Of a DNA stretch of 64,000 bases, positions 12,216 to 45,022 are shown piece after piece. Positions within the stretch are counted from its first letter, which is position 1; each line of letters begins with the position of its first letter. A model generated the notes under the pieces. The model worked only from the letters and a program-made list of their open reading frames with translations. It was not told where the DNA came from and searched no databases. The position numbers and the translations under genes were made by a program. Location: IMG/VR virus record IMGVR_UViG_3300002161_000764, positions 3,514-67,513 of that record. One strand, given 5' to 3'. The DNA is from a virus.

Positions 12216-12237
12216 GTAAAATACCCTGTTATTTTAC
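12216..12237 (-). terminator. Weak AT-rich hairpin at the end of gp17
   Basis: Stem GTAAAATA / TATTTTAC with a 6-base loop that overlaps the terminase stop codon. GC-poor, so termination is doubtful. Confidence 0.25.
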
Positions 12238-15116: not shown

Positions 15117-15137
15117 TGTATCCTCAGAACTTTTGTT

Positions 15138-15145
15138 TATTTATA
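15138..15145 (-). promoter_or_regulatory. Late promoter TATAAATA (perfect T4 consensus)
   Basis: Minus-strand TATAAATA 22 bases before the ATG of the 14376-15116 gene, overlapping the end of the next gene upstream. Confidence 0.65.
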
Positions 15146-15491
15146 ATGCTACACCCTTGCCGTTAATACTGGTTAGTAGCCAGTATCCTTCAGGCATTTT
15201 CTTTAAAGTTAAGTTCTCATCATCGTTTTTAATGAGTTCAAACCACTGTCCTGGTGAGGTGTTATAAATTCTGAATTCATTATTTCCTAATGACGTATGA
15301 ATTTCAACCTTTGTGATGTCCCATATCTGGTATGGGGGTGATGACTTAATTGATAAGGAAGCATTTCCAACTGCATATCCATCTTTTATTGCAACCTTCA
15401 GCGGCTTATGTGCTTGGTACAACTTAAGCAGCATTTTTCCGATAAAAACATCCGGAATGCTGTCTTCCTCGAAGAGTTCAAACATCTTCAT
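15141..15491 (-). CDS. Small leader-bearing protein, putative internal head protein
   Basis: 116 residues. Leader MKMFELFEEDS with an LFE cleavage motif, then GKMLLKLYQAHKPLKVAI and a C-terminal LTLKKMPEGYWLL. The same layout (leader, KxxKxxKP helix-strand, closing nG..xLxV strand) appears in the genes at 16133, 16459, 26943, 27861, 28225 and 28547, suggesting distant paralogues. No known function. It overlaps the upstream gene by 4 bases. Confidence 0.75.
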   Translation of the reverse strand: MKMFELFEEDSIPDVFIGKMLLKLYQAHKPLKVAIKDGYAVGNASLSIKSSPPYQIWDITKVEIHTSLGNNEFRIYNTSPGQWFELIKNDDENLTLKKMPEGYWLLTSINGKGVAL

Positions 15492-15898
15492 CGTGGGCTA
15501 TGCCCCCATACCTTTAGAGAAAGTAACTTTCTGGTTGGCTCACCATTTTCGTCATACAGTGGTCCAGCCGCACCCTTCATTCTGCTAATGAAACTTACCT
15601 GCTTACCGGCCCATCGCCAGTCATTTGCGTCCCAGTCTTTTACTGGTCGCTTCTTCATGCTGATTATGTGTTTGGCTGACTGGCGACCAGTGCTAATTCC
15701 AAGTTTTGATGCCACTGATTGCTTTAGCCCAGGATGCTTCTTCGGATCAGACTTGGCTAACTCAAGTTGGCGATCTAACCATTTTTCCAGGCTTTCAGCA
15801 GACATATTGACAAGAGTTTTCCAGCGAGAATACAAATCCTGTCGGCGCTTCTTTTCGCTGTCAGAAACTTCTTCAGTTAAAATTTCAGAAACTCTCAT
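15488..15898 (-). CDS. Leader-bearing conserved phage protein, basic
   Basis: 136 residues. Leader MRVSEILTEEVSD with LTE motif, followed by a basic region and a well-preserved C-terminal segment rich in Trp (DWDANDWRWAGKQVSF, then RMKGAAGPLYDENG and LLSLKVWGHSPR). This C-terminal module looks like a conserved phage protein family, but I cannot name a function. Overlaps both neighbours by 4 bases, so it belongs to one translational chain. Confidence 0.75.
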   Translation of the reverse strand: MRVSEILTEEVSDSEKKRRQDLYSRWKTLVNMSAESLEKWLDRQLELAKSDPKKHPGLKQSVASKLGISTGRQSAKHIISMKKRPVKDWDANDWRWAGKQVSFISRMKGAAGPLYDENGEPTRKLLSLKVWGHSPR

Positions 15899-16146
15899 TT
15901 TTTATCCTTTGCCTTTTTCCAAAGGTCCTTATCAGCTTTTCTAGCTGGCCCGTTTGTTAAAAACGATGAAACTCTTGCATGTGCCCATTGGTGCTGACTT
16001 ACACCAGGCCTATGACCAGTTCTCCACGCTGCTGCACCTCTGTTCCAAACCTTCCTAAGGATTGATACCGAAATACCTGTCTTCTCAGCCTTATTCTTCA
16101 GAGCGGTATCAACGCTTCCTTCAGTAAGGAGTTCAGTTAGCTTCAT
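15895..16146 (-). CDS. Leader-bearing DUF5824-like small protein
   Basis: 83 residues if it starts at MKLTELLTEGSVD (ATG at 16146), which gives the expected leader with an LTE site. An in-frame ATG at 16170 has the better RBS (AAAGGTTCTA), so a product 8 residues longer is possible. The body has ILRKVWNRGAAAWRTGHRPG and QWAHARVSSFLTNG, motifs I associate with the phage family DUF5824 (function unknown). It overlaps the upstream gene by 14 bases. Confidence 0.75.
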   Translation of the reverse strand: MKLTELLTEGSVDTALKNKAEKTGISVSILRKVWNRGAAAWRTGHRPGVSQHQWAHARVSSFLTNGPARKADKDLWKKAKDKK

Positions 16147-16462
16147 TTGAATACACCAGTAGGCGCCCATTAGAACCTTTTTGGAAGTGCAGTCGTCCGT
16201 CGTCCAGCATATCCTTCGTATAGACGATGTAACGGTGTCCAGTTACCTGAGCAATCACCGAGAGCTCGAGCGAACCATCAGGACGAAGTTGGTAGCCGCT
16301 GATCTTCATCGGTTCATTCTCAATCTCCTTGTCCAGCAGCTTTACCGGCTGTCCTTTATTCTTGACGTGATCGGCAATAGTGCGCTTCAGCATTGATACT
16401 AGAATTGGTAAGTCTGCGCTTTCAGCCACGCTTACTTCAGTAAGGAGTTCAATAACCTTCAT
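16133..16462 (-). CDS. Small leader-bearing protein, putative internal head protein
   Basis: 109 residues. Leader MKVIELLTEVSVAE with LTE motif, then SMLKRTIADHVKNKGQPVKL and a closing strand GRLLVYSNE. Same layout as the small paralogues at 15141 and 26943. No known domain. Slightly higher GC than its neighbours, which may hint at separate acquisition. Confidence 0.72.
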   Translation of the reverse strand: MKVIELLTEVSVAESADLPILVSMLKRTIADHVKNKGQPVKLLDKEIENEPMKISGYQLRPDGSLELSVIAQVTGHRYIVYTKDMLDDGRLHFQKGSNGRLLVYSNEAN

Positions 16463-17082
16463 TTGCCAAATCTCCGTTCAAACTTCTTGGTGTGTTCTGA
16501 CTTAGGAAGGTTTTTGCCCTTCTTCTTCAACTCAGCCTTGTACTTTTGGTCTGCTGTCCAATCATCGGGGTAGGCGGCTGGGTCAGTGTGTTCCATATCT
16601 TTAAAGCGCTTTATTTCACGTGTCATCTCAGCCTTCAGTTCTTTTTTCCTTGATGACCCTTTAAAGTTAAGATAACTCTTCTTTATTTTTTCTTCATTAG
16701 TTACCTGTTCTCTATCAATAATTGTCCAAACGCCATTTATCTTCTTAATGGTATAATTGTCATCAATGGGTCTTTCAAATTCGAAGAGCATAGTGCTCGT
16801 AGCACCACGGCCATACAACGCAAACTCCTTATAAGGGCTAATGTGCAGTTGATCGTTGTTTATGGCACGTCTAAGTATGTCGACTGGATCAACGAGCATA
16901 TACTCTGCCTGCACTACCCATCCTTCCTTAGTGCTGCGCATCGCCTGATATCCACGCTGTGTATTACCAGACAGGAAGGTACGTCCCTTCGCATTGACAT
17001 AGATGGGCTTTTTAGCCTTTACTAGTTTGAGCAGCATAGTAGCTAATATGCTTTCATTCTCGAATAACTGAGCGAGCTTCAT
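16459..17082 (-). CDS. Leader-bearing protein with basic C-terminus
   Basis: 207 residues. Leader MKLAQLFENES (LFE motif), then MLLKLVKAKKPIYVNAKG and a VDPVDILRRAI segment, with a closing strand YTIKKINGVWTIID. The last ~70 residues are highly charged and lysine/arginine-rich, compatible with binding to packaged DNA. Possibly a fusion of a small paralogue (compare 15141) with a basic tail. Function unknown. Confidence 0.72.
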   Translation of the reverse strand: MKLAQLFENESILATMLLKLVKAKKPIYVNAKGRTFLSGNTQRGYQAMRSTKEGWVVQAEYMLVDPVDILRRAINNDQLHISPYKEFALYGRGATSTMLFEFERPIDDNYTIKKINGVWTIIDREQVTNEEKIKKSYLNFKGSSRKKELKAEMTREIKRFKDMEHTDPAAYPDDWTADQKYKAELKKKGKNLPKSEHTKKFERRFGK

Positions 17083-17381: not shown

Positions 17382-17383
17382 AG

Positions 17384-17839
17384 TTATTCTTCTTTGTTCT
17401 TAGGTACAAATTTTTCAGATAGTTCTTTTATCCACTCTAGCGCTACTGGAAGAGCGTCTTTTGGTGAAGCAAAGCGCTTGGAGTTTTTTGCTTTTAAAAC
17501 TTGAGTTAGGCTTTGACCATCACTCATTGAAACATACCAGCCACTCTCATTCTTAACACCATGCTTTTCTGGTGCAAAGGTGTAAATTACTGCTACCCAC
17601 CCAACATTTGCTTTACCATTTTTTGCAGGTCTAATTAGTTTTGCACGCAAAATTCTTTGCTTTGGAATTCCAAACTTCCCACCCGATTTAATTGTACTCT
17701 GTTCAATTTTATCAGCGTATGGCTTAAGCGCCCTTGAAAAAAGGTTAAACATAAAATCTACTTCTTCATCGGTTTGTTGTTCAACCTCCAACTTTTCCTT
17801 AGATTTTTTTGCTGCTTCTACCAGGTTATGAAGTTTCAT
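17384..17839 (-). CDS. Leader-bearing protein of unknown function
   Basis: 151 residues. Leader MKLHNLVEAAKK with an LVE motif, then an acidic QTDEEVDFMFNLFSRAL segment that recurs as ETQEEIDFINKMFLKSL in the 18392-18889 product. The two are probably paralogues. C-terminus SGWYVSMSDGQSLTQVLKAK resembles DGEWYAQLTIG of that gene. RBS AGGAACTAGC precedes the ATG. Function unknown. Confidence 0.72.
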   Translation of the reverse strand: MKLHNLVEAAKKSKEKLEVEQQTDEEVDFMFNLFSRALKPYADKIEQSTIKSGGKFGIPKQRILRAKLIRPAKNGKANVGWVAVIYTFAPEKHGVKNESGWYVSMSDGQSLTQVLKAKNSKRFASPKDALPVALEWIKELSEKFVPKNKEE

Positions 17840-17870
17840 TGCTAGTTCCTACCTTACTTTTTTGTGCTGT

Positions 17871-18377
17871 TCAACTGAACTTCACAATTCCCTGCGAAAC
17901 TGTGGGTAGAATAATGGTAATTGAAACATTAGGTGTAGGATAAACTACGCTCAATGGAGTAACTTCGGAAAGAACAGTTTGCGTTACATCCCACGTATAG
18001 ACCTTTATTTCGGGGTCATATCCAAGGTTATGCGTTACTGCCCAAGTGTTAGAATCTGATGTTTGGTAATGAGTGAAGTTAAGCCCCTGTAGAGCAAGTG
18101 CATTCTTCATTCTGTACCTGAAACTCGTAGTGCCAAGATTAGTTTCTGCTTGAACTGCAGATAGAAGAGAGTTAGCCATAGAATACCAAGCAGCATCAAA
18201 TGCAGCATCATCTAGATATACAGTTCCTACGAGGGCAACTCTATCTTGTTCAAGTTGCTCTACCCAGTTTGAAAGTTGATTTACAACGCTCTTTAAAACA
18301 GCAACTTCAGTTCTTAACTCATTTCTTCTGTCATGAAGAGAATTTACTATTGGTACACCTGATGGAAATGCTGACAT
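17871..18377 (-). CDS. Virion/fibre-like protein with coiled-coil N-terminus
   Basis: 168 residues. Residues ~15-45 (RRNELRTEVAVLKSVVNQLS) form a likely coiled coil suited to trimerisation. The C-terminal ~60 residues begin NTWAVTHNLGYDPEIKVYTW and end SQGIVKFS, a compact beta domain that also closes the 38666-39556 protein (NTWTFNHGLN ... GYALISL). It has no leader, in contrast with its neighbours. Probably a small fibre or baseplate appendage. Confidence 0.72.
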   Translation of the reverse strand: MSAFPSGVPIVNSLHDRRNELRTEVAVLKSVVNQLSNWVEQLEQDRVALVGTVYLDDAAFDAAWYSMANSLLSAVQAETNLGTTSFRYRMKNALALQGLNFTHYQTSDSNTWAVTHNLGYDPEIKVYTWDVTQTVLSEVTPLSVVYPTPNVSITIILPTVSQGIVKFS

Positions 18378-18391
18378 GCTTCGCCTTTGTA

Positions 18392-18889
18392 TTATTTCTT
18401 CTTACGTGATTTTAGATTCTTTTCAACTTCTCTTTCTTCTATCTCTTTTAATCCGTGTTCTACAGATATATGCGCCTTGGCAACATATTGTTTTATTGCC
18501 TTAAGCAACTCGGTGGGAGTTCCCTTCATTGTTTTTGGGCGACGCATTCCGATTGTTAGTTGTGCGTACCACTCTCCATCCCTGTAGTATATGAAATATT
18601 GAACTTTTCCTCTCGATGCGATGTCTATAACATCAAAAGCATAGCCAGGAATTACAAGGTATTTTTCTCTAAACTTCTGTACTTGAGGAATTTTCAACAA
18701 ACCAAATATTGTGCTGACACCATAAGAAGCAGGCACTACAAGAAAAGGATGTGAGTCTGGTGGAAGTGACTTCAGAAACATCTTATTAATAAAGTCAATT
18801 TCCTCCTGAGTTTCATGATCAACGGTCGGGGCTGCTTTATAGCCACGATTGCGATGATTAGCAGCCTCAACTAATTGAGAAAGAATCAT
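18392..18889 (-). CDS. Leader-bearing protein of unknown function
   Basis: 165 residues. Leader MILSQLVEAANH with LVE motif. An EEIDFINKMF segment and a GEWYAQLTIG strand relate it to the 17384-17839 product. The C-terminus is very basic (EREVEKNLKSRKKK), consistent with nucleic-acid contact. Overlaps the upstream Dps-like gene by 4 bases. Confidence 0.72.
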   Translation of the reverse strand: MILSQLVEAANHRNRGYKAAPTVDHETQEEIDFINKMFLKSLPPDSHPFLVVPASYGVSTIFGLLKIPQVQKFREKYLVIPGYAFDVIDIASRGKVQYFIYYRDGEWYAQLTIGMRRPKTMKGTPTELLKAIKQYVAKAHISVEHGLKEIEEREVEKNLKSRKKK

Positions 18890-19278
18890 GCAAGATTTTC
18901 CATCTTATATTTAATTCTAGCAACAATGGCTTGAAGTTCCTCAAACTTATTCACCAAGAAGCCATCTTGCGGAATTATCTCGTGTTGCATTTCAAGGAAA
19001 TGATACAACTGCGCAACAAATTCTTGTGGTGTATTTTCACTAAAAATATTCGGTTCGCTTATTTCAATCCAAGTTTCAGTACCATATCCACCCATGTAGA
19101 TTTCCATAAGATCATCTATTAGTTCATTCATGCCATCGTACAGCTCGCCGAGCGCCATGTGCTGTGAAAAGGATTTAACCTTCCAATGCCACATTCTAGC
19201 GGTGTTTTGAGCAGCTAGTAGGTGTGATACTAATTCACCAATAGCTTCATCGTTTTTCTTATTGTTGTTATTATCCAT
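18886..19278 (-). CDS. Dps/ferritin-like protein (DUF5856-type)
   Basis: 130 residues, all-helical pattern. The helix ARMWHWKVKSFSQHMALG followed by ELYDGMNELIDDLMEIYMGG strongly resembles the Dps/ferritin ferroxidase helix pair (HWxVK ... H ... LxD ... E), and the family is the one I know as DUF5856 of tailed phages. It could bind iron or DNA, but the His-His spacing (9) is shorter than in classical Dps, so activity is uncertain. It starts MDNNNNKK and has no capsid-targeting leader. It lies within the internal-protein array and is coupled to the next gene by 4 bases. Confidence 0.75.
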   Translation of the reverse strand: MDNNNNKKNDEAIGELVSHLLAAQNTARMWHWKVKSFSQHMALGELYDGMNELIDDLMEIYMGGYGTETWIEISEPNIFSENTPQEFVAQLYHFLEMQHEIIPQDGFLVNKFEELQAIVARIKYKMENLA

Positions 19279-19391
19279 TATTTCCTCTTAAAGAAGTTAA
19301 TTACTGTCCATTGGTACAAAACATAGATGCGTTTTTGCTTATTTCAACAATGATTTATACCATGTTTTATTTACTTTTCCGGGTAGAATTG

Positions 19392-19631
19392 TTATCTATT
19401 TTTCATACTTTTCGTAAAAATATGCTCTAAAAGCATAAAATCAGAAAAGGTTAGTGCTGTATTTTCACCCATCATCTTCTTGAAGATGCCAGTGGTATAG
19501 GCCCAAAATCGTTTTGTCCCATGCTTGAATTTTTCTTCAGCAGATTTTTTAGCAGATTCCCAACGCTCCTCTGCCTTACTCATTGAGACACCATGTTTTT
19601 CAGCGTATTTTTTAACTAAAGTTGCTGGCAT
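19392..19631 (-). CDS. Small conserved phage protein (basic, Trp-containing)
   Basis: 79 residues from the ATG at 19631 (MPATLVKKYAEKHGVSMSKA). A TTG 18 bases upstream is a poorer start. The motif EERWESAKKSAEEKF followed by RFWAYTTGIFKKMMGE resembles small conserved phage proteins of unknown role. The gap of ~110 bases downstream holds TAAATA-type sequences but no gene. Confidence 0.7.
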   Translation of the reverse strand: MPATLVKKYAEKHGVSMSKAEERWESAKKSAEEKFKHGTKRFWAYTTGIFKKMMGENTALTFSDFMLLEHIFTKSMKNR

Positions 19632-19645
19632 ATTATTCTCACAGT

Positions 19646-20038
19646 TCAAATTTTAGTAGGTGCAGTTTGTGGTTCCGCACTGCCAGGATATTCTTTGGCT
19701 TCGCCTGAAAGCTGTTCTAGAAAAACTGGTTTTAAAATCTTATCGCGCACAAGTTCCTTGAAGTTTGGCTTAACATCTGCGCGAACCTTTACCACAACCC
19801 TGTTGCTGTTGCCCATAAGAGGTCTAGACCCAAAAATTCCAGCAGTTGCGCTAATTGACCATTTATTTTCGCCAAAAGTACGATCAAAAATGCCCGCAGT
19901 AATTGGCCAAACTGGCCAGGCAACAATCGGCCTGACTACATAGTCCTTGTACTCAATCTGCTGTTCTGGTTCCCATTCGCCCTCCCAGTCATCATCTTGA
20001 GATAGCTTTGCAGTTTCAAAAAGTTCTGTCAGTTTCAT
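19646..20038 (-). CDS. Leader-bearing protein of unknown function
   Basis: 130 residues from the ATG at 20038 (MKLTELFETAKLSQ). The longer frame upstream of this Met only overlaps the neighbouring gene. The LFE motif fits prohead-protease processing. The body is tryptophan- and proline-rich (DYVVRPIVAWPVWPITAGIF) and ends with VKPNFKELVRDKILKPVF. No known family. One base separates it from the stop of the upstream gene. Confidence 0.72.
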   Translation of the reverse strand: MKLTELFETAKLSQDDDWEGEWEPEQQIEYKDYVVRPIVAWPVWPITAGIFDRTFGENKWSISATAGIFGSRPLMGNSNRVVVKVRADVKPNFKELVRDKILKPVFLEQLSGEAKEYPGSAEPQTAPTKI

Positions 20039-20039
20039 T

Positions 20040-20585
20040 TTAACCAAACTTTTTCTTGAGGGCGGCTCTAAGAGCATCTGCCTTCGCTGCACTAATAAGT
20101 TTTGAAGTATTTTGCTGCTGTGAAATTGCTCCATAGGCAGACTTAAGCTTTTCATCCTTTGTTTTTTTATGAACACGTGAATTATACAGCCAAGCTGCCA
20201 TTGCCAAAACACCAATATCTCCGTCGCGATACCTTGCCCAACGTCCTTCTGCATCAGATGCGCCGCTGTCATTCCATTTTTCTAAAATACGCGCTTCATT
20301 TGCTGGAGATTTTGATTTAAACATTACTCTGCTAATAATTTTTTTCCCATCAGAAGTTTCTATACGAACAAATACACCACGAAGTGCATTAAAGACTCTG
20401 ATTAAAATATTTCCAAGACCCATTTTGATTCGTTCAGATTTTACTTCTTTTCCAACCTTCAGTACCTTTTCTGCAGTATCATCATCAACGACGACTAATT
20501 CATTTGGTTGGGTGTCAAGAAATGATGCAGCTTTATTCATGGCAAGCTGATTAGCATTTTCATTTAATAGCTCATGGATTTTCAT
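20040..20585 (-). CDS. Leader-bearing basic protein of unknown function
   Basis: 181 residues. Leader MKIHELLNENANQ with LNE motif. The core has GRWARYRDGDIGVLAMAAWL and the last ~45 residues are Lys/Ala-rich helices (KADALRAALKKKFG). No recognised enzyme motif. It overlaps the upstream gene by 4 bases (ATGA). Confidence 0.72.
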   Translation of the reverse strand: MKIHELLNENANQLAMNKAASFLDTQPNELVVVDDDTAEKVLKVGKEVKSERIKMGLGNILIRVFNALRGVFVRIETSDGKKIISRVMFKSKSPANEARILEKWNDSGASDAEGRWARYRDGDIGVLAMAAWLYNSRVHKKTKDEKLKSAYGAISQQQNTSKLISAAKADALRAALKKKFG

Positions 20586-21388
20586 TTTTGCACAGATATT
20601 TGCTTAATCAGAGTTGGTAAATGTGTCTCAAGCCATTGCACATATTGCTGACTTGAGTACTTGTTTGCATTTTTTGTGATTGTGGCAATAAATTGAGTTC
20701 CAACATGATCTGCAATAAGTTGCCCAAATGATGATTTTGCACCCTGCCCTGAGACCGTCTTATCAACGCCAAATTCATGTGTTCGTTGGCCCGTCTTAAT
20801 TCCACTATCTGCTAACCACTTCTTTACGACTGCAACTAGGTCCTTTTCAACACTGGGGTCATAGTAGTAGAACTTCAATGAGTCATTGTGTGACATAAAA
20901 TAATCCAAATGACGGTGTGTCTTGAAGCTAATCGGCGTCTGCTTATCATTTGAAAAATCGCGTATCTTTGAAATGAGCGTGTTGAATGATTTTAGAAACT
21001 TTGCGATATTTTCTTTTGTACGCTCAACCGTGATATAGTAGTTCAATGTGCGGTCTTGGCCTGTTTTTCTTGGTATGTTAGCATTTATATCAACTTGTGC
21101 CCACGGTCCGCCGCCGCCAGTATTGAAGAATTTTCCGCTAAAGTAAGTCTTCCACGCGTTTACAGCGGTGTCATCAAAGCCAACCTGCTTTGCCTTTCCT
21201 ATTTTGGCAATATCAACATCATTTACAACGATGTCATATATAATTGACTTTATTTCTTTTTGAAGAGTAGAATTACTGGTATCAACTACTAGATCTGAAA
21301 TAAGTTTTTCTAATTTTGCTTTTACGGGAGCAAAGTTAAACTGCTGAGCTTCAGCCAAAACCTGTAGATAAATGTCAGCCAGTTTCAT
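20582..21388 (-). CDS. Largest leader-bearing protein of block A, function unknown
   Basis: 268 residues. Leader MKLADIYLQVLAEAQQ with LAE motif. It is predicted mixed alpha/beta, with a segment of aromatic residues (DYFMSHNDSLKFYYYDPSVE) and a C-terminal helical region starting SSFGQLIADHVGTQFIATI. No known domain or catalytic signature was recognised. At this size it could be an effector enzyme of an unrecognised family. Confidence 0.72.
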   Translation of the reverse strand: MKLADIYLQVLAEAQQFNFAPVKAKLEKLISDLVVDTSNSTLQKEIKSIIYDIVVNDVDIAKIGKAKQVGFDDTAVNAWKTYFSGKFFNTGGGGPWAQVDINANIPRKTGQDRTLNYYITVERTKENIAKFLKSFNTLISKIRDFSNDKQTPISFKTHRHLDYFMSHNDSLKFYYYDPSVEKDLVAVVKKWLADSGIKTGQRTHEFGVDKTVSGQGAKSSFGQLIADHVGTQFIATITKNANKYSSQQYVQWLETHLPTLIKQISVQK

Positions 21389-21395
21389 TTTACAC

Positions 21396-21599
21396 TCATC
21401 TAATATTAAGTTTAGCCTTAAGCTCCTCTAGACCTTCTGTTCCGCTGATATTCTCTTTCTCAGCCGCTTTAGGGTCAGTAAGCGTTAGTTTCCAATTACC
21501 ACCATTACCTGCTTTAGCCTTACGAAGGTATGCTGGTGTTTTAACACGAGTTGATGCCTTTGGGGCAGCAGCTGTTTCTAGTAGTTGACTAACTTTCAT
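21396..21599 (-). CDS. Very small leader-bearing basic protein
   Basis: 67 residues. Leader MKVSQLLETAAAPK with LLE motif. The remaining ~55 residues are basic (VKTPAYLRKAKAGNGGNWKL). If cut after Glu8, a ~59-residue cationic peptide would remain, similar in size to small T4 internal proteins. Overlaps the next gene by 4 bases. Confidence 0.7.
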   Translation of the reverse strand: MKVSQLLETAAAPKASTRVKTPAYLRKAKAGNGGNWKLTLTDPKAAEKENISGTEGLEELKAKLNIR

Positions 21600-24652: not shown

Positions 24653-25252
24653 TTAGGCGACGGCACCGCCTAATGCAGTTCCGTAACCAGCGCCACTCTC
24701 GATATGACGTGCATGATCATATCTGATGTTCATCGTGATTGTTGCTGCTTCAGAGGCTGAGTAGTCACGGTCTCCGAAGTCGGCTGATGTTAGCATGCAG
24801 CCCTCAAGAATCCATGTCTGTACAATGCCTTCATCACCATCAAGTTGCTCAATCTTTGAGCCGAACTTGTAGTTAGAACCAGTTGCTGCGGTATTCAGCC
24901 AACGTCCGTCAAGGTCAACACCAATTAGGCGCTGCTGTGTCTCAAGTTGCCCCTTGACTACAGTTGCTGCTAGCCCAGTAATATCGTCTTCAACTGTTAC
25001 GCTGATTGGTTCCCAAGTGTGCTTACCTGCAACGTACGCTACTGAGTTGTAGCGGTGCAATGCAACTTCTTCAAATGATAAGTTTGGAAGAGTGATGTTG
25101 GTTACCTGCATTGACAGGTTCTTTGCGCTGTTTGCGATGCCTGGAACAAGTTGTCCCATGTTCAGGAAAGTGATACGGAATTTGTTCTTTAAGCGAGGAT
25201 GGAGAATACCTGCGCCCACGCCAGGAATTCCAAAGTTTGATAGCGTTGCCAT
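24653..25252 (-). CDS. 19: Tail tube protein gp19
   Basis: 199 residues (T4 gp19 163). Starts MATLSNFGIPGVGAGILHPR followed by LKNKFRITFLN, the conserved tube start; NLSMQVTNITLPNLSFEEVA and the C-terminal ATITMNIRYDHARH are also typical. It polymerises into the inner tube through which DNA passes. RBS CTAAAAGGAG is optimal. A late promoter lies ~42 bases upstream and a strong terminator follows, so the gene forms a monocistronic late unit, as expected for a highly expressed structural protein. Confidence 0.95.
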   Translation of the reverse strand: MATLSNFGIPGVGAGILHPRLKNKFRITFLNMGQLVPGIANSAKNLSMQVTNITLPNLSFEEVALHRYNSVAYVAGKHTWEPISVTVEDDITGLAATVVKGQLETQQRLIGVDLDGRWLNTAATGSNYKFGSKIEQLDGDEGIVQTWILEGCMLTSADFGDRDYSASEAATITMNIRYDHARHIESGAGYGTALGGAVA

Positions 25253-25364: not shown

Positions 25365-26951
25365 ATGACAAAAAATAGAACTTTAGATGATCACATCAAA
25401 CTTGGGCACGTTCGGTACATTTCAAAAGATGCTGAACAGGAACTTATAGAAAGAACGCCTGGTTGTAGTGGTGACAATGCAGAAAGATTATTTTGGCTTT
25501 TGAATGGATTGTCTTCATATCCTAAATGTCAATCGTGTTCTAACACTTTAACATCTAAACAGTGGCAGCCTTTCTTAAAGAAACTTCACCGTACTGATGA
25601 AAACAAAAAGAGTGGTTATCTTCCATTTTGCGGAAAAAGTTGCGCTTATCTTAATGGGTCAAAAAAGGAAACCTATAAAAAAACCTGTATTGAGCGCTAC
25701 GGGGTTGAACACCCAATGCTGACAGACGATGTTGTTGCCAAGATAAAAGCAACTAACATTGACCGCTATGGAGAACCAGCACCTATGCGCTGGTCTGGTC
25801 AAAAATTCAAAGATGCTATTAGGCAAAAATACAATGTAGAAAATGTGCGGGCAATACCACGGGTGCATGAAGCAACAATTTACGCGAAAGCAAAAACAAC
25901 TACTGAACTGCTACCTCTAAAAATTATTGAATTAGAAAAATTGTTTAACGTAGAATGTCAAACAGATTTATCACAATTTGTTCTTATTCATCGCATGTAT
26001 GATATTTCATTTTCTTGGAAACACAAGTGTGGAAGGGTTTATGAAAGCAATATATCTGAGCGTGGAATTCGCCAGTGCCCAAGTTGCTCATCAGGAACAT
26101 CTAAAGGTGAGCAGGCAGTCATGGACTTTATTAAGTCTCTTGGCATAGAGGTTGAGCATCGAAACAAGTCAGTGATTGCACCAAAAGAAATTGACATCTG
26201 GATACCTGAGCATAAACTCGGTATTGAGTTTGACGGTACCTACTGGCACAGCGCTAAGTTCCAAAATGAAAAGCAGAGTTTAGAAAAACTGACCATGATG
26301 GAGCAGATTGGCTGTCGTCTAATTACGCTGCAGGAGCACCTGTGGGTCAATAAGCCTGAGCACGTCAAGAACCGGTTGGCGTCAATTCTAGGTAGAAATA
26401 AACGAGTGCAGGGTAGAAAAACAGAGGTACGCGAGATTGACAAGGAAGCGGCGCGGGAGTTCCTAACTGAGAACCACCTTCAGGGCTATGCACGTTCAAC
26501 TGTGCAACTTGGTCTGTTTTACAAGGATGAACTCATCTCAGTTGCTACCTTCTCAAAGCCAAGGTGGGCAAAAAAGCATGACTGGGAATTAATTCGCATG
26601 GCTTCAAAGGCTGGATTAATGGTGCAGGGTGGACCATCAAAACTTATATCTGAGTTTAGGAAAAATTATTCTGGAAGTTTAATAAGTTACGCTGATCGGT
26701 GCTGGAGCACAGGCAACGTTTATAATCAAGTTGGTTTTAAGTTTAGCCACTTTACGACTCCCTCCTATTGGTGGATCCACCATATGTTGGGAACATATGC
26801 CAGGTACCAGACACAGAAGAAAAAACTTCCAAGGCTCCTCACAGATCTTAATAAGACGTTTTCTCCAGAACTTTCTGAGGAAGACAATATGCGAATTGCT
26901 GGGTTTTTGCCGCTGTATGACCGAGGAAATAGCGTTTGGATTTTAGCCTAA
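25365..26951 (+). CDS. Vsr-like homing endonuclease with zinc-finger and RYG repeats
   Basis: 528 residues on the strand opposite to its neighbours. The N-terminal part has CQSC ... FCGKSC zinc-binding pairs and repeated ERYGVEHPM / DRYGEPAPM motifs found in phage homing nucleases. A second Cys cluster is CGRVYES ... CPSC. Around residue 275-310 lies the nuclease core KEIDIWIPEHKLGIEFDGTY followed by WHS and an MEQIGCRLITLQEHLW segment. This resembles the Vsr/PD-(D/E)XK-like I-Bth0305I class. The C-terminal third may bind DNA. The first half is more AT-rich than its neighbours, as in recent insertions. It has its own late promoter and overlaps the convergent gene by 9 bases. Related to the gene at 59039-60199. 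Confidence 0.85.
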   Translation: MTKNRTLDDHIKLGHVRYISKDAEQELIERTPGCSGDNAERLFWLLNGLSSYPKCQSCSNTLTSKQWQPFLKKLHRTDENKKSGYLPFCGKSCAYLNGSKKETYKKTCIERYGVEHPMLTDDVVAKIKATNIDRYGEPAPMRWSGQKFKDAIRQKYNVENVRAIPRVHEATIYAKAKTTTELLPLKIIELEKLFNVECQTDLSQFVLIHRMYDISFSWKHKCGRVYESNISERGIRQCPSCSSGTSKGEQAVMDFIKSLGIEVEHRNKSVIAPKEIDIWIPEHKLGIEFDGTYWHSAKFQNEKQSLEKLTMMEQIGCRLITLQEHLWVNKPEHVKNRLASILGRNKRVQGRKTEVREIDKEAAREFLTENHLQGYARSTVQLGLFYKDELISVATFSKPRWAKKHDWELIRMASKAGLMVQGGPSKLISEFRKNYSGSLISYADRCWSTGNVYNQVGFKFSHFTTPSYWWIHHMLGTYARYQTQKKKLPRLLTDLNKTFSPELSEEDNMRIAGFLPLYDRGNSVWILA

Positions 26952-27260
26952 TTCGTTGCTGACGACAAGCGTCTTGACGCCATCTCGCTCTTCTACCTTT
27001 AGACGGAGCGTATCTAGTTGCTCATCCGATAGGTAACTATTCATGCCCCATCTTTTTCCATGCTTCGTGGAAAATAGCCAGTCATTATACTTGTATTCTA
27101 CTGACGACAACTCACCGTCTTTTATTTGCGTGTATTTTCCAATAAGTTCAGCAACGTGCACTGGCTTACCAGCATCGAGCCACTTTTTGATTGTTTCGAC
27201 GGCAAGCCTACCTCGCATGGATACCTTATCGCTGAAGTCCAGTATTTCCGTCAGAAGCAT
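26943..27260 (-). CDS. Small leader-bearing protein (block B)
   Basis: 105 residues. N-terminus MLLTEILDFSDKV is leader-like but ends ILD instead of LxE. Then AVETIKKWLDAGKPVHVAEL and a closing LKVEERDGVKTLVVSNE. The ending matches LKVKTIDGVKTLILTKDE of the 28547-28900 product, so the two are paralogues. Function unknown. Confidence 0.72.
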   Translation of the reverse strand: MLLTEILDFSDKVSMRGRLAVETIKKWLDAGKPVHVAELIGKYTQIKDGELSSVEYKYNDWLFSTKHGKRWGMNSYLSDEQLDTLRLKVEERDGVKTLVVSNELG

Positions 27261-27857
27261 TTAAACCTCTTTTTGATTTACCCAAATAGTTTCAAGAGGT
27301 TTCTTTACTATGCTTTTTCCTTCAGAAATAATTCCAATTTTCATCTGCTTAATCATTTGGGGAGTTATGTCTCTTGAGCGAAGACCACCTCTTAAGAAGA
27401 AATGAACAGGTACAGGTGCATCGCCAAGCATGCGGCGAATAGTACGCATTCTTCCTCTTCCCTCGTGTCCCCTTATTTTTGGCAGTGAAAACAGATCATC
27501 TTCATCTTCTGAAAATTGTATTGATAAGAAAGGAATTCCAACCGCATATCCCTCTTTTATCAGACGTTCAAGTTCTATAGATGTAGGTTCCTGTGCGCCA
27601 TCATCAGAAAGAGCCAGGCTTAAAAACACTGAAGGCTTAACCATTGCCACAAAGCCCTCATACCAAACATTTTGATTACTTGGTACTGAACCTAGCCCAT
27701 CAGAAGCGCTAAAGGTTATATCACCTATTCTGTAATTTTTTTCCGCGTGGGCTGGTGACCAGGCAGGAGCATCAACAATTTTCTTGGCATAGACCTTTCG
27801 GTCTTCTTTATTTTCTCTTACGGATGTAATTCCAAGAAACTGCTTAAACGTCTTCAT
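27261..27857 (-). CDS. Leader-bearing protein with ParB/sulfiredoxin-like motif
   Basis: 198 residues. N-terminus MKTFKQFLGITSVRENKEDR is very close to the T4 internal-protein targeting sequence MKTYQEFIAE. The centre contains KIRGHEGRGRMRTIRRMLGD followed by APVPVHFFLRGG. This layout (GHxGRxR, helix, GD.PVPV strand) recalls the ParB/sulfiredoxin nucleotide-binding fold. The assignment is by eye. If right, this is a candidate enzyme carried in the head. Next to four similar leader genes. Confidence 0.75.
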   Translation of the reverse strand: MKTFKQFLGITSVRENKEDRKVYAKKIVDAPAWSPAHAEKNYRIGDITFSASDGLGSVPSNQNVWYEGFVAMVKPSVFLSLALSDDGAQEPTSIELERLIKEGYAVGIPFLSIQFSEDEDDLFSLPKIRGHEGRGRMRTIRRMLGDAPVPVHFFLRGGLRSRDITPQMIKQMKIGIISEGKSIVKKPLETIWVNQKEV

Positions 27858-27860
27858 AAC

Positions 27861-28223
27861 TTATTTTTCCTTATGACCAGTAAAAATAAGTTTATTGTGC
27901 CCTTTACCATTAACATTAAACAGTATTTTAAACTTGTCCACGTCTTCTTCTTTAATTTCCATCTCTCTTTGGCCCGTAAAGTCACCAAAATCCTCGTTCC
28001 AGTGATCGTAATAGATAACAACAGGTGTTTGTATTTTTCCAGAAGAGTCCGTATATGGATGCCCAACTTCCGCACCACCGACCACTCCGACATAATAGCC
28101 ATCATCATAGTTGTCAATAAAGATATTCAAACCATTGTGCGTATCACTAACACGGTTTATCATTTTTATAAAAAATGCCGCGTCTATCATCTCAGTAATA
28201 AACTGTTTAAAGGTTTTTTGCAT
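27861..28223 (-). CDS. Leader-bearing small protein (block B)
   Basis: 120 residues. Leader MQKTFKQFITEMIDAAFF with ITE cleavage motif, then FIKMINRV, an acidic GLNIFIDNYDDGYYVGVVGG, and EEDVDKFKILFNVNGKGHNK near the end. It aligns by eye with the 28225 and 28547 products (leader, FxxKxIxK helix, acidic middle, DIDKLxF closing). Function unknown. Confidence 0.75.
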   Translation of the reverse strand: MQKTFKQFITEMIDAAFFIKMINRVSDTHNGLNIFIDNYDDGYYVGVVGGAEVGHPYTDSSGKIQTPVVIYYDHWNEDFGDFTGQREMEIKEEDVDKFKILFNVNGKGHNKLIFTGHKEK

Positions 28224-28224
28224 T

Positions 28225-28560
28225 TTAATCTTTCATCAGCAGCGCATTTCTCTTCTTGCCGGTGGGAGATAGTACAGTGCCAAAATAAAGTTTATCAATA
28301 TCATCTTTGTGAATGGATAAAACCGCTGGAACAAATGTGTGTTCATACTCGCTCCACGCTTTGAACTCAATATCTATACCACCGCCAGAATTAACACTAA
28401 CACCATCATATTCTGGTGATTCAATTTCACCTTCTTCATAGTTACCATCATTGTAGTAGCCTTGAAGATAAAGAGGGGAAATAGCCTGCTTTTTCCTAAT
28501 TAACTTTACAAGAAACTCTGAATCCATAAATTCAAGAAGGAAGTGCTTAAATGTTTTCAT
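28225..28560 (-). CDS. Leader-bearing small protein (block B)
   Basis: 111 residues. Leader MKTFKHFLLEFMDSEFLVKL with LLE motif. The acidic middle (YYNDGNYEEGEIESPEYDGV) and the closing HKDDIDKLYFGTVLSPTGKK parallel the 27861 product. It overlaps the upstream gene by 14 bases. Function unknown. Confidence 0.75.
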   Translation of the reverse strand: MKTFKHFLLEFMDSEFLVKLIRKKQAISPLYLQGYYNDGNYEEGEIESPEYDGVSVNSGGGIDIEFKAWSEYEHTFVPAVLSIHKDDIDKLYFGTVLSPTGKKRNALLMKD

Positions 28561-28900
28561 CTTTAGTAAGTATTAAGGTTTTGACGCCATCAATTGTTTT
28601 TACTTTGAGGTTTGGAATTAGGCTTCTGTGAATATGGATAATTGGATTATTTTTATCAAAATCATCATCAAAATTCTTCCTATATTCAACAAACAGACCT
28701 TCCAAACTTCCCACCCAGACCTTGTTAATAAAACCTTTTGCTTGCATAGAAGAATCGTTTGGCAAGTCATATTGAACAAGTGGAAAGTCTTCTGGTGCTA
28801 TTTTAATGGCAAATTTGCCGCCGGCATCAACTGACTTCTTTATCATCTTGACAATGAATTCTTTATCGAACTCTAATAGAAATTGCTTGAATGTCATCAT
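28547..28900 (-). CDS. Leader-bearing small protein (block B, first gene)
   Basis: 117 residues. Leader MMTFKQFLLEFDKEFIVKMI with LLE motif, then KKSVDAGGKFAIKI and a closing LKVKTIDGVKTLILTKDE shared with the 26943 product. Either of the two adjacent Met codons could start translation. A TAAATA-type promoter lies ~20 bases upstream. Confidence 0.75.
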   Translation of the reverse strand: MMTFKQFLLEFDKEFIVKMIKKSVDAGGKFAIKIAPEDFPLVQYDLPNDSSMQAKGFINKVWVGSLEGLFVEYRKNFDDDFDKNNPIIHIHRSLIPNLKVKTIDGVKTLILTKDENI

Positions 28901-29010: not shown

Positions 29011-30858
29011 TTAGATTTCTGCGCCAGTGTTTACAACACGAATTGGGATGTAGATAAATTCTGCTGCCTTTGTTGGTTTGATTGCAACATCTAGATATAG
29101 TTCGTTGCGATCAATACGGTCTGGCGTGTTATTGCTCTCATCACAGTATGAAGCATAATCCATAAGACCACGCTTGATAAGGATGTCATTCATGATACCA
29201 TCGGCTGCTGCCTTCAGGTTGTCACGAGTGATTTGGTCATTTGGCTCGAACACGAAAGGTAGAGCACCCTTACGAAGGGCTCTGCGTAGGAACATGACCA
29301 GCCGTACAACGTTGATGCGGTCCAGAGCAGATGCTGCCGGTGCTGACGTCTTCTGACCCCATACAATTAGACCACGACCTGGGAAGAATACGATTGGATT
29401 GATGTTCTTGTCGTACTCATACAGGTTGTCGCGTTGACCTTCATTCAGATTTGACTCGATGAAAGTGGTTGCTGTGCCTGGGGTGCCAGTAAAGTAACCT
29501 ACCTGTGAAACACCTGTTACGATACCACGCTGGATACCGGCTGGAGCAAACCATACATATGAAGCGTTATCGCTATATGCAAGTGTCTTAAGTGCTGTTC
29601 CTGATGGTGCGCCTAGAACGTTACGTCCATCTAGGTTAGACATCAGGCACCATGGGTAGTAGTAAGCAGCATTATTGCTGGAGAAGCGGGCTGATGAAAG
29701 CGCCCATTGAGCGGCTTGCTCAGGTGTCTTGTCGCCTGGAACATCAGCAATTACCATTGCCTCTTCTTTGACTGAAGTGCTAAGAGCAAGAAGTTCATCA
29801 ACTACTTCTGGATAGCCTGGGCAAAGGATTAGATTATACTCATACAGTGGTGAGCGAACTTCGGTATTGCTGTTGATTGCAGCCTGAAGAGCAGTTGTAA
29901 TTGCAACCCGCTTAGCAGCATCATTTGCGCCTAGAGGAGCAGAGATTGTTACTGGGTTAACATCAATAGTAAATTCATCACCTGCTACGAATGGTGTAGT
30001 TCCAGCGATTGCAGTAAAGTTGATTCTATTGTTGTCAAATGGAGAACCTACAACACCAGAACCTGCAACACCAGAAACTGTACCAGTTACGGAATAGGCT
30101 GTTGGCGTTGTGAATGTTACAGTAAAGGTTTCATCAATTGCTAGGGTATCAGGGACTAGAGCAACTAGTGTTCCATTTCCCGTGTTTGCAACACCTGGTA
30201 CTGCAACATATACTAGCGAGAACATGAACTTATCACCAATTGCAAAAGGTGTAGAACCATCGTTAACAGTCAAATCAACTACTGTTGAGGTGAATGGAAT
30301 TCCAACAGCGCCTGCACCAACATAACCAGACAGTGAGCCTGTTACGGTGAAGGTAGATGGTGATGTGAATGTTACAGAAATTGTCTGTGGCTCAACCACA
30401 GAACTTGCACCAGAGATTGAACTAATTGTTCCATTTCCAATTCCATTGAATACGATGGAACTAGACTGTGCCTCTGGAGTTCCTAGGCTCATGAATGAAC
30501 GTGGCTCATCAGACAAGTCAATATTTGCGCGTACGACAAATGCACGATTTCCAATGTCAAGGAACTGATTGAGTGCCAATAGACCATACTCATTACGAGC
30601 ATCACCGTGGAATTCATTATTTGAGGAATCCTTCCGGAAATGTGGAATACCATACAGTTCAAGTGCTTGTGCTCTTGAGGTAACTGTGCGTACTACTCCA
30701 GATTCCAGAGTGCCGGCTGCAGGGGTGACACCATTTGGTTGGGTCTTTCCTGCTCTTGTTGCCACGAAGAACAGTGGCAGCGTTGGAGCAGAAACAGGGA
30801 TAAAAAAGCTCTCATTAACTACTGAGACTGAGACGCCTGGTGATACTAGTGTTGGCAT
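29011..30858 (-). CDS. 18: Contractile tail sheath protein gp18 with two extra Ig-like modules
   Basis: 615 residues. N-terminus MPTLVSPGVSVSVVNESFFI and the C-terminal half (GRGLIVWGQKTS, INVVRLVMFLRRALRKGALP, FEPNDQITRDNLK) are typical of T4-like sheath proteins. Residues ~139-213 and ~222-303 are two tandem modules of ~75 residues with the pattern TxTVTGxxSGxxGxGxVGxPF ... GxTPFxxGDxF. They are probably surface-exposed on the assembled sheath. The same module occurs once in gp14. RBS GATAGGAGAAAAAT is strong; late promoter upstream and terminator downstream make it a single-gene unit. Confidence 0.93.
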   Translation of the reverse strand: MPTLVSPGVSVSVVNESFFIPVSAPTLPLFFVATRAGKTQPNGVTPAAGTLESGVVRTVTSRAQALELYGIPHFRKDSSNNEFHGDARNEYGLLALNQFLDIGNRAFVVRANIDLSDEPRSFMSLGTPEAQSSSIVFNGIGNGTISSISGASSVVEPQTISVTFTSPSTFTVTGSLSGYVGAGAVGIPFTSTVVDLTVNDGSTPFAIGDKFMFSLVYVAVPGVANTGNGTLVALVPDTLAIDETFTVTFTTPTAYSVTGTVSGVAGSGVVGSPFDNNRINFTAIAGTTPFVAGDEFTIDVNPVTISAPLGANDAAKRVAITTALQAAINSNTEVRSPLYEYNLILCPGYPEVVDELLALSTSVKEEAMVIADVPGDKTPEQAAQWALSSARFSSNNAAYYYPWCLMSNLDGRNVLGAPSGTALKTLAYSDNASYVWFAPAGIQRGIVTGVSQVGYFTGTPGTATTFIESNLNEGQRDNLYEYDKNINPIVFFPGRGLIVWGQKTSAPAASALDRINVVRLVMFLRRALRKGALPFVFEPNDQITRDNLKAAADGIMNDILIKRGLMDYASYCDESNNTPDRIDRNELYLDVAIKPTKAAEFIYIPIRVVNTGAEI

Positions 30859-40843: not shown

Positions 40844-42124
40844 TTAGCTAAATGCCACATTTTGTACTAGAACGCGAGCGTAGTAATCTGCGCTGTTGCC
40901 CAGTGATGTGCCTGTGCTTGTGAAAGTTGCCTTACCATAACGTGTCATCAGGCTGACTGCTGGCATGAAGGTGTTGGCATCAACAACTACGCCAGAAGAC
41001 ATTAGAGGAACGTATGGGCAGTAGAAGTAACCGCTGTCGAGTTCAGAGGCACCGCCCTTGAAGCCGATCAGGATGTCTTCGCCTGTTGCGCCGGCAGCAT
41101 TTACTGCACCGCCGCTGATTGACCATGCGTCATTTACACCCCAATTGTATGAGTAAACCTTCATCTGACCATTCATTGTGCCAACCATACGGTTGCCAAC
41201 TGGTGCATCGAAGGAACCTGATACTGCTGGTGCAAATACTGACTTAGCGGCTGACTGGAGCATAGAAGTGATCAGGTGACCACCGACTAGCCAGTTGCCA
41301 GGACCACGACGGGTCTTAGCACCGATTTCGTTAGCCATCTTGTTGATCAGTACGCCGAGGTGGGCATAGCGATCGCCTAGATAGTTAGGTGCAAAACCTG
41401 GTGTGGCTGATGCAAAGTCGAACGTTGCCGTTGTGTTTGCCAGAGCCAGTAGGTCTGTCAGGATTTCATTGTCGATTTCGTGAGCGATTTGTGCTGATAG
41501 AGCAGCAGTTAGTTCGCTCTCGAGGTCCAGACCGTGCTGTGCATTCAGGTCTTGAGCAGCTTCCATTGACCAGCGAGCTTGCAGCTTACGTGAGCCAGCT
41601 GTGATGGTCTGCTTCAGAACTGATAGACGCATTGCCTTACCACCAAAGCCTTCGAAGTTGCCAGTCGTGGCGGCGAAGCCGTCAGATGTAGCAGCTGTTA
41701 CAGCTGGTGGGTAGCCGGCGGTACCGACGTTTGCAGAAGAGTAGAAACGCTTCATCTTGCTGTTATTGCCGAAGGCTTCGTCGCCAGCAGCAATATCGTT
41801 TCCAGCAACTACTGAGGCGCCAGTGGCGTCAGCAGCTTCGCTGAAAGCAAAACGCAGTGAGTATACTAGTCCTACTGGACCAGACATTGGCTGAACGCCA
41901 ACTAGGTCAGAGGAAATCGTACCTGGAAGGATACGACGGATCATTGGAATTACAATCTTCTGGAAGTTTGCAATATCACCAGCGCCTTGAGCGCCAGCTG
42001 GTGCTGTTTCCATTAGATGCTTTTTTTGGTTTTCTAGAAGAGTCTCGACGACCTGCTTCTTTGAACCCTGGAGGCCTTCAAGAAGAGCCTCTTTGGTCTC
42101 TTGCCAGTTTTCAAACAGTTGCAT
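40844..42124 (-). CDS. 23: Major capsid protein gp23
   Basis: 426 residues (T4 gp23 521). HK97-fold family. N-terminal prosequence MQLFENWQETKEALLEGLQG is followed by KKHLMETAPAG, where LME (Glu39) fits the prohead-protease rule (L/I)xE. Typical segments: IVIPMIRRILPGTISSDLVG, QPMSGPVGLVYSLRF, LNAQHGLDLESELTAALSAQ and MTRYGKATFTSTGTSLGNSA. It forms the hexamers of the head shell, and no separate vertex protein gene is present here. RBS CAAAAGGAGATCACT is optimal; a strong terminator follows. Confidence 0.96.
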   Translation of the reverse strand: MQLFENWQETKEALLEGLQGSKKQVVETLLENQKKHLMETAPAGAQGAGDIANFQKIVIPMIRRILPGTISSDLVGVQPMSGPVGLVYSLRFAFSEAADATGASVVAGNDIAAGDEAFGNNSKMKRFYSSANVGTAGYPPAVTAATSDGFAATTGNFEGFGGKAMRLSVLKQTITAGSRKLQARWSMEAAQDLNAQHGLDLESELTAALSAQIAHEIDNEILTDLLALANTTATFDFASATPGFAPNYLGDRYAHLGVLINKMANEIGAKTRRGPGNWLVGGHLITSMLQSAAKSVFAPAVSGSFDAPVGNRMVGTMNGQMKVYSYNWGVNDAWSISGGAVNAAGATGEDILIGFKGGASELDSGYFYCPYVPLMSSGVVVDANTFMPAVSLMTRYGKATFTSTGTSLGNSADYYARVLVQNVAFS

Positions 42125-42153: not shown

Positions 42154-43047
42154 TTACTTGATACCTGCGAGGCGCTTCAGGTGTGCAAGTCCTTCATTGA
42201 CTGGCACAGCCTTTTGCTGGGTAGTTGCTACTGACTCTTCGCCAGTTACAACCTTCGTTTGTGTTTCAACAGCTTTTTCTTCAGTCAGTGCCTGTGCAAC
42301 TTCTGCTGCCTGCTCACCTTCCTTTAGAATTCTGCCAATGAAAAATTTGTATGATTCTTCAAGACGAGCAGTGTCAACGTTCTTTAGGACCATTGCCATT
42401 TGCTCACGCTTCTTGCCAGTCAGAGAAGATAGAACCTGCTCCATCTTGGCTTCGCGAATCATCTTGTTGATTTCTTCTTCGCTATCAGCAAGACGCTTTT
42501 CAGCATCTGATAGCTTTTGTTCTGCTACGTTCAGTTTAGACTGAATTGCCTCTTCATCAACATAGCTTTGTGAGTACTCGTTGACGAAGGCTTCAAAAAT
42601 GCGACGACCGAATTCATTCTGCTTGACGACTTCAAGATCTTCTTTGAGTTCGTCCATTTCAGAAGTCAGGCGCATTTCGAAGAAAGCGTCGATTTTGTCG
42701 ACTAGAGAGTCTAGCTCTGTTGCAACTTCAGTTGCGAGCTTATGCTTCTCTTCAACTAGCTTTTCAGCGTATTCTGCCTCTAGATCACGGAAGCGCTCGA
42801 TGTCTCCCTTGAGCTCAGAAATTTCCTTTGTTAGGGCTTCTGCAACGAAACCATCTACTTTAGAGATGAGTTCGTCTCTTTCAGAAATCCACTGTTCAGC
42901 TAGTTCATTACGAACTTCCATTGAAACGTCTTCACGGACTTTCGTCTTGAAGGCTTCAACAGATGCTGTCCATTGCTCAGAAATCTCTGTTTTGGTTTCT
43001 TCGCTGAGAAGCTCGGACTGTAGAAGCTTGTTCAGAATCTCATCCAT
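42154..43047 (-). CDS. 22: Prohead core scaffold gp22
   Basis: 297 residues, highly charged and almost wholly alpha-helical, with long heptad regions (residues ~20-215). Position directly before gp23 and composition identify the scaffold. Possible protease sites (for example LSE near the N-terminus) fit its degradation to peptides by gp21 during maturation. RBS AAAAGGAGAACGCA. Late promoter ~82 bases upstream. Confidence 0.9.
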   Translation of the reverse strand: MDEILNKLLQSELLSEETKTEISEQWTASVEAFKTKVREDVSMEVRNELAEQWISERDELISKVDGFVAEALTKEISELKGDIERFRDLEAEYAEKLVEEKHKLATEVATELDSLVDKIDAFFEMRLTSEMDELKEDLEVVKQNEFGRRIFEAFVNEYSQSYVDEEAIQSKLNVAEQKLSDAEKRLADSEEEINKMIREAKMEQVLSSLTGKKREQMAMVLKNVDTARLEESYKFFIGRILKEGEQAAEVAQALTEEKAVETQTKVVTGEESVATTQQKAVPVNEGLAHLKRLAGIK

Positions 43048-44410: not shown

Positions 44411-45022
44411 TTATTTTGAGCCCTTGCGAATTGCTTCAAGAAGACATAAAATTTCCTTTTTCAAATAAGCTTGTGCATTCTTATCATGTACTACTGTTTC
44501 AGCAAGAGACATAATCTTCTTGCTTCCAAGTGCTTCCATAACTGCAGATGGGTAGGCATCAGGAGCAGATGGCTGTGACACGATGTCTACGGTAACGAAT
44601 GAGAAGTCAGAAACTTCTCCACTCTCATTTACGTTTCCAGTTCCGCGTGATGATACTCCTAGTCTTACTCCACCCTCAATTAGACCGCGTGCAATATTTC
44701 CGCAGGGGGTGTTAAGAAGTTTCATCTTGCCAACAACGTTATTTCCATCCATTGTCATTTCAGAAATGACGTGTGATACTCTTCCAAGGTCAATTGACAG
44801 GGTGTCAGGGTGATTTAGTTCGCCGCAAATGCTAAAGCCTTCGCTGATTTTCTTCTGTGCAGACTCAACTACCTTTGACATTTCTGCGGAGCGGTACTTT
44901 CTTCCATTTCCATTTACACACTCTGCCTGCATCAGAATACCCTTTAGGTATAGGTCTTGGCCCTTGCGCATTTCGCAGAGGCTAGCAGTAGATGGTGAAA
45001 GCTGTTCTGTTAAGATTTTCAT
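44411..45022 (-). CDS. 21: Prohead protease gp21
   Basis: 203 residues. Serine protease of the herpesvirus/T4 prohead type: catalytic His71 in GELNHPDTLSIDLGRVSH and the Ser of LGVSSRG (124/125). N-terminal MKILTEQLSPS includes an LTE self-cleavage site. It sits in the prohead core and cleaves gp23, scaffold and internal proteins after (L/I)xE before packaging. RBS TTAAGGGGAAAAA. The preceding interval holds a GATAAATA late-promoter-like octamer. Confidence 0.95.
   Translation of the reverse strand: MKILTEQLSPSTASLCEMRKGQDLYLKGILMQAECVNGNGRKYRSAEMSKVVESAQKKISEGFSICGELNHPDTLSIDLGRVSHVISEMTMDGNNVVGKMKLLNTPCGNIARGLIEGGVRLGVSSRGTGNVNESGEVSDFSFVTVDIVSQPSAPDAYPSAVMEALGSKKIMSLAETVVHDKNAQAYLKKEILCLLEAIRKGSK

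What the first reader, a model, noticed from the sequence alone, without database searches (positions are those of the whole stretch)
26943..28900. Diverging paralogue family within the leader proteins
Products at 28547, 28225, 27861 and 26943 (and more remotely 15141, 16133, 16459) share a layout: leader, FxxKxIxK helix, acidic middle, then D(I/V)DKLxF and a closing (D)GVKTLxxT or GKxxNxLxF strand. The ends LKVKTIDGVKTLILT and LKVEERDGVKTLVV are clearly related, while the middles differ strongly. This looks like tandem duplication followed by fast diversification, as in an effector family.
Basis: partly seen in the sequence, partly recalled or inferred. Interest (0 to 1): 0.6.

Follow-up and report, generated by a model that had tools for sequence, protein, structure and literature searches.

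The report
Jumbo-phage leader-tagged injected cargo genes
This giant phage appears to carry an array of small, fast-changing proteins that share a ten-residue address tag for being packed into its head and injected with the DNA; several are true gene duplicates, and related phages hang known host-takeover enzymes on the same tag.

Summary
Compared without the leader, 28225 and 27861 are certain paralogues; 28547 is probable; 26943 shares only a 17-residue C-terminus with 28547. 15141 and the N-terminal domain of 16459 form a second certain family, tandemly arrayed in a relative. 16133 is unproven. Profiles do not join the two families; their predicted folds show the same element order but only at medium confidence. 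So: at least two diversified families, not one demonstrated family. The leader is best read as a T4-type capsid-targeting sequence cut by prohead protease gp21 (F4, F/Y7, L/I8, E10). The phage encodes gp21, and its major capsid protein has LxE just before the mature domain. In relatives the same leader sits on an ADP-ribosyltransferase, a T7-type protein kinase and a zeta-type kinase. Between two phages with identical terminase, the family-A gene is swapped in place (41% identity) with the leader kept, so exchange adds to duplication. Four fused proteins keep LxE at the domain junction. Packaging, cleavage and injection are inferred, not shown.

The parts
28547..28900 (-). Leader protein, 117 aa: MMTFKQFLLE + body; probable relative of 28225, shares C-terminal LKVxxxDGVKTL with 26943
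   Evidence: ORF; similarity; no relatives in phages or IMG/VR
28225..28560 (-). Leader protein, 111 aa: MKTFKHFLLE + body; certain paralogue of 27861
   Evidence: model
27861..28223 (-). Leader protein, 120 aa: MQKTFKQFITE + body; certain paralogue of 28225
27261..27857 (-). Leader protein, 198 aa: MKTFKQF leader without the E, then a conserved domain (GHEGRGRM) seen behind an intact leader in relatives and fused to a 28225-type domain in L006
26943..27260 (-). Small protein, 105 aa: MLLTEILD start (D for E); link to 28547 limited to 17 C-terminal residues
15141..15491 (-). Leader protein of family A (MKMFELFEE + body)
   Evidence: model
16459..17082 (-). Leader protein, two domains: family-A domain (about 16666-17064) and a C-terminal domain that in L040 and L043 is fused to a 15895-type domain
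16133..16462 (-). Leader protein MKVIELLTE; similar layout, family unproven
15488..15898 (-). Leader protein MRVSEILTE with DUF3140/DUF6321-like body; fused behind a Nudix domain in L023
15895..16146 (-). Leader protein MKLTELLTE; body fused in L040 and L043 with LxE kept at the junction
17384..17839 (-). Leader protein MKLHNLVE; paralogue of 18392-18889
   Evidence: z 7.2
18392..18889 (-). Leader protein MILSQLVE; paralogue of 17384-17839
   Evidence: z 7.2
44411..45022 (-). gp21-type prohead protease, the presumed leader-cutting enzyme
   Evidence: PHROG 207, E 1.5e-57
40844..42124 (-). Major capsid protein gp23; LME|TA just before the mature domain
   Evidence: Pfam E 2.3e-88
42154..43047 (-). 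gp22-like scaffold, presumed docking core
   Evidence: position between gp21 and gp23; relatives

Best explanation
The genes are internal-head cargo of a T4-superfamily jumbo phage. Each protein carries an N-terminal capsid-targeting sequence (MxTFKxF(L/I)xE or the shorter MKhxxLhxE). The tag would dock it on the prohead core, gp21 would cut after the (L/I)xE glutamate, and the freed body would stay in the head and enter the host with the DNA, most likely acting early against host defence or host machinery. The bodies are modular and turn over fast: small alpha+beta families (28225/27861, with 28547 probable; 15141/16459-N) expand by tandem duplication, are fused to other domains, and are exchanged in place while the leader stays. 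SHOWN: paralogy, leader conservation, gp21 gene and LxE in gp23, enzyme cargo with the same leader in relatives, in-place replacement with the leader kept, LxE at fusion junctions. INFERRED: packaging, cleavage, injection, anti-host action.
For: Leader excess at gene starts: 16/86 against shuffle mean 5.2, max 12 of 1000. In 22 ten-residue leaders chosen by (T/S)FK and E10, position 7 is F/Y in all and 8 is L/I in all, unforced, matching the T4 IPIII positions for targeting (4, 7) and processing (8, 10) (PMC9026906). gp21 present. L(M/L)E before the mature gp23 domain in four readable relatives. Same leader on ART-PolyVal 2.3e-8, zeta/AAA_33 5e-8, T7-type kinase 9e-17. L032/L033 swap; four fusion junctions.
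Against: No virion proteomics for this lineage. 26943 and 27261 lack the cleavage E. No homology to T4 internal proteins or any known fold. RaK2, a distant cultured relative, shows no such array in the ORFs checked. The leader excess is only about 2.5-fold in G003 and G004.
Confidence: 0.75

Rival explanations
1. All seven proteins form one anciently duplicated family with one fold, the leader, helix and C-terminal hairpin being what remains.
For: Two models share the order of elements; the set has more low-p pairs than controls; a chain of weak links connects members.
Against: Profile-profile probability between the two proven families 0.6%, 0.4% with model-derived secondary structure; 0/30 links of the other members to family A/C in relatives; the set was chosen for likeness.
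Confidence: 0.35
2. The leader proteins are prohead core or scaffold helpers that act only in head assembly, not injected effectors.
For: gp21 also cuts core proteins in T4; IPIII affects T4 head assembly (PMC9026906).
Against: The same leader carries enzyme domains (ART-PolyVal, T7-type kinase, zeta-type kinase) in relatives; bodies are swapped between near-identical phages, unlike conserved assembly parts.
Confidence: 0.15
3. The leader is not a targeting tag: it is a chance or translational feature of short late genes.
For: The motif is short, and some [LI]xE gene starts occur by chance.
Against: Unforced invariance at positions 7 and 8, excess at gene starts, leader kept where bodies differ, LxE at fusion junctions.
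Confidence: 0.06

Closest known systems
T4 internal proteins IPI, IPII, IPIII with the capsid-targeting sequence
   Same: Ten-residue N-terminal tag with the same key positions (4, 7, 8, 10), gp21 protease in the genome, small diverse bodies behind a shared tag (PMC9026906).
   Different: Many more tagged genes, bodies unrelated to T4 proteins in the libraries searched, some fused with LxE between domains.
T4 Alt (packaged ADP-ribosyltransferase)
   Same: Packaged and gp21-processed enzyme in T4; relatives here have a leader-tagged ART-PolyVal protein.
   Different: Different ART family; no ART found in this window.
Paralogue families of SPN3US and phiKZ heads
   Same: Expanded families of head paralogues in giant phages, some ejected (PMC5694885).
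   Different: Those phages use a diverged protease; no sequence link was tested here.
Polyvalent proteins of phages and conjugative elements
   Same: Injected multi-domain effectors that include ART and other enzyme domains (PMC7824862; PMC5512222 listed).
   Different: Here cargo is mostly separate small proteins with individual tags; fused ones keep a prohead-protease motif between domains.

Membership tests
T4-type capsid-targeted internal proteins | N-terminal targeting sequence: hydrophobic/aromatic at 4 and 7, L/I at 8, E at 10 | tested here: met
   28547, 28225, 27861 (one residue longer) and 22 leaders across five contigs; not met by 26943 and 27261
T4-type capsid-targeted internal proteins | gp21-type prohead protease encoded | tested here: met
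   44411-45022, PHROG 207 E 1.5e-57
T4-type capsid-targeted internal proteins | Protease specificity L/I-x-E in this lineage | tested here: inconclusive
   LxE conserved before mature gp23 in four relatives; cleavage itself not shown
T4-type capsid-targeted internal proteins | Body homologous to a T4 internal protein | tested here: not met
   no Pfam or PHROG family; hence 'works like', not 'is an IP homologue'
T4-type capsid-targeted internal proteins | Present in virion, cleaved, injected | not testable with these tools
   needs virion proteomics
Single paralogue family (reader) | Sequence homology of all bodies | tested here: not met
   two proven groups, not joined
Single paralogue family (reader) | Same fold | tested here: inconclusive

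The most novel reading that the evidence does not exclude
These jumbo phages hold a leader-defined repertoire of a dozen or more injected effectors (ADP-ribosyltransferases, kinases, new small alpha+beta domains) built by swapping bodies behind a constant tag, and some are polyproteins that the prohead protease cuts at LxE sites placed between domains.
Probability: 0.5. Interest if true: 0.75.

Novelty: new variant of a known kind. Interest (0 to 1): 0.56.

Why it matters
If right, a ten-residue tag lets one read off candidate injected proteins of this jumbo-phage lineage from sequence alone, including many with no known relatives. T4 precedents (IPI blocks a restriction enzyme; IPIII is needed to infect a particular E. 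coli strain) suggest such proteins act against first-line host defences, so the list would be a ready set of counter-defence candidates. In-place exchange of bodies behind a fixed tag would explain how the set changes so fast.

Tried and rejected
Pfam and PHROGs on the members: nothing useful. Direct searches with 28547 in IMG/VR and phage records: none. Profile of 28225/27861 against 32 related records and all IMG/VR contigs: only L006. PDB by sequence: none. Foldseek on both models: nothing below E 0.001. Joining the two families with model-derived secondary structure: no gain. ParB-like reading of the 27261 domain (GHEGRGRM): not confirmed. T4 late-promoter word TATAAATA: chance level. RaK2: no such array in the ORFs checked. 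XacN1: sheath region fetched but its gene starts were not read. dN/dS: not attempted, since the only homologue of 28225/27861 is too diverged (31%). A first leader scan was too strict and missed known members; replaced.

Full report
SETTING. The window is bases 3514-67513 of a 104,408-base IMG/VR virus record. It carries a T4-type head and tail module on the minus strand: portal 45929-47593, gp21 protease 44411-45022 (PHROG 207, E 1.5e-57), gp22-like scaffold 42154-43047, major capsid protein gp23 40844-42124 (Pfam E 2.3e-88), tail sheath 29011-30858, tail tube 24653-25252 and large terminase 12234-13766 (the portal, tube and terminase names rest on sequence likeness and position). The nearest named phages by sheath are XacN1 and Stenotrophomonas CM1/RAS14 at about 50%; closer relatives are uncultured IMG/VR contigs.

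THE OBSERVATION. The five small genes between the sheath and the plus-strand gene 25365-26951 exist as described, closely packed or overlapping. Leaders: 28547 MMTFKQFLLE, 28225 MKTFKHFLLE, 27861 MQKTFKQFITE, 27261 MKTFKQFLGI, 26943 MLLTEILD. A second run of genes with shorter leaders (MKhxxLhxE) lies at 14376-21599.

ARE THEY PARALOGUES? Tested with leaders removed. 28225 and 27861 are homologous to each other and to the first domain of a fused protein in L006 (z 6.2, 24.6 and 8.9; profile E 1e-41 to 1e-48). 15141 and the first ~118 residues of 16459 belong to a second family with five loci in other phages (E 1e-22 to 1e-37); a subgroup (G020 57475, L032 9580, L033 1083) joins at 93% profile-profile probability and G020 59776 at 81%. 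In G020 this family is arrayed in tandem next to terminase genes. 28547 links weakly to 28225 (p 0.005) and, by 17 C-terminal residues, to 26943 (p 0.001; 14 of 18 bases identical over DGVKTL). The two families are not joined by profiles (0.6%), nor with model-derived secondary structure (0.4%). The seven members plus contig gene 73918 show more low-p pairs than controls (25% against 2-3%), but they were chosen for likeness; against family-A/C members elsewhere, 28547, 28225, 27861, 26943 and 16133 show none in 30.

FOLD. 28225 (four-row alignment) gave pLDDT 75, pTM 0.62, order alpha beta beta (beta) beta beta alpha beta beta. 15141 (eleven rows) gave pLDDT 67, pTM 0.63, order alpha beta beta beta beta alpha beta beta. 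The agreement is suggestive only. Neither has a PDB match below E 0.001, and the first has no viral match either.

THE LEADER. The pattern occurs at 16 of 86 gene starts of the contig, against a shuffle mean of 5.2 (maximum of 1000: 12) and an internal-position mean of 3.3; in G003 and G004 the excess is about 2.5-fold. Among 22 ten-residue leaders selected by (T/S)FK at 3-5 and E at 10, position 7 is F/Y in all and position 8 is L/I in all, neither imposed by the selection. In T4 IPIII targeting depends on residues 4 and 7 and processing on 8 and 10, the first ten residues suffice for packaging, and D at 10 blocks processing but not targeting (PMC9026906); 26943 would resemble that last case. 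T4 gp21 cuts after L/I-x-E (PMC9026906). Here gp23 keeps L(M/L)E just before its mature domain in the four sequences whose junction could be read.

WHAT ELSE CARRIES IT. In relatives the same leader precedes an ADP-ribosyltransferase of the ART-PolyVal type (L022, 2.3e-8), a zeta-toxin/AAA_33 kinase (G003, 5e-8) and a T7-type protein kinase whose PHROG is described as an inhibitor of host transcription (G020, 9e-17). Tandem leader proteins in G003 and G004 share an R...S...E layout reminiscent of ADP-ribosyltransferases, but no library confirmed it: a lead only.

HOW THE SET CHANGES. Window against L006: tube 91%, sheath 79%, 27261 body 52%, 28225 body 31%. L032 and L033 have identical terminase protein, a 98% identical upstream gene and a 94% identical downstream gene, yet the family-A gene between them has a 41% identical body and, in L033, an extra domain, with the leader MMTFKQFL(A/Q)E in both. 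After the sheath, L024 and L025 have nearly the same spacer and gene start but different bodies. Replacement and insertion at the leader therefore act beside duplication.

FUSIONS. Four fused proteins (L023, L033, L040, L043) have LxE where the stand-alone relative has its leader end: FLSE|, SLNE|, MLSE|, LILE|. In L043 the rest of the leader is gone. Background LxE density elsewhere in these proteins is 0-1.8% per residue, or a 0-10% chance per junction. L040 and L043 may be one event, and a relic of recent fusion is not excluded. L006 has VTE instead. L023 also contains a Nudix domain (E 3e-15).

CONCLUSION. The best reading is a set of capsid-targeted, gp21-processed, injected cargo proteins that work like T4 internal proteins and have modular bodies. 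Leader and protease support that class; homology of the bodies to known families was tested and not found; virion presence, cleavage, injection and function are untested. T4 precedent for function: IPI inhibits a type IV restriction system and IPIII is needed to infect ECOR17 (PMC9391042).

Noticed in passing
window 43936-44370 and 43194-43403; G028 37129 and 65226; L035 2980: A gp67-like N-terminal module of about 45 residues (LKxMLQ.IIN...MHxYFVxKTREVxGL) is reused as the start of other proteins with different C-termini; possibly a second way into the prohead core.
   Followed up: partly
G003 136448-143288 and G004 4557-10870 (IMG/VR relatives): Tandem arrays of leader-tagged proteins of about 210-310 aa; seven of them aligned share R, S and E positions reminiscent of ADP-ribosyltransferases, not confirmed by Pfam or PDB.
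   Followed up: partly
L023 15338-16609: One 424-residue protein joins a 17079-like domain, a Nudix hydrolase (Pfam E 3.2e-15) and a 15488-like domain, with LxE motifs at or near the junctions.
   Followed up: partly
window 25365-26951 (+) and 45097-46023 (-): Genes resembling homing endonucleases, one beside the leader cluster and one between portal and protease; named from sequence appearance only.
   Followed up: no
window 1065-2522, 7510-9810, 9949-12135: Three large proteins begin with nearly the same 60-70 residues (MLYDGLSLAEGT.VSNLTIASGTSNP), an N-terminal module shared by probable tail or fibre proteins.
   Followed up: no
L024 and L025, between sheath stop and first leader gene: A GGGAGAC-TTCG-GTCTCCC hairpin followed by a T-rich run, terminator-like, directly before the leader gene.
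   Followed up: no
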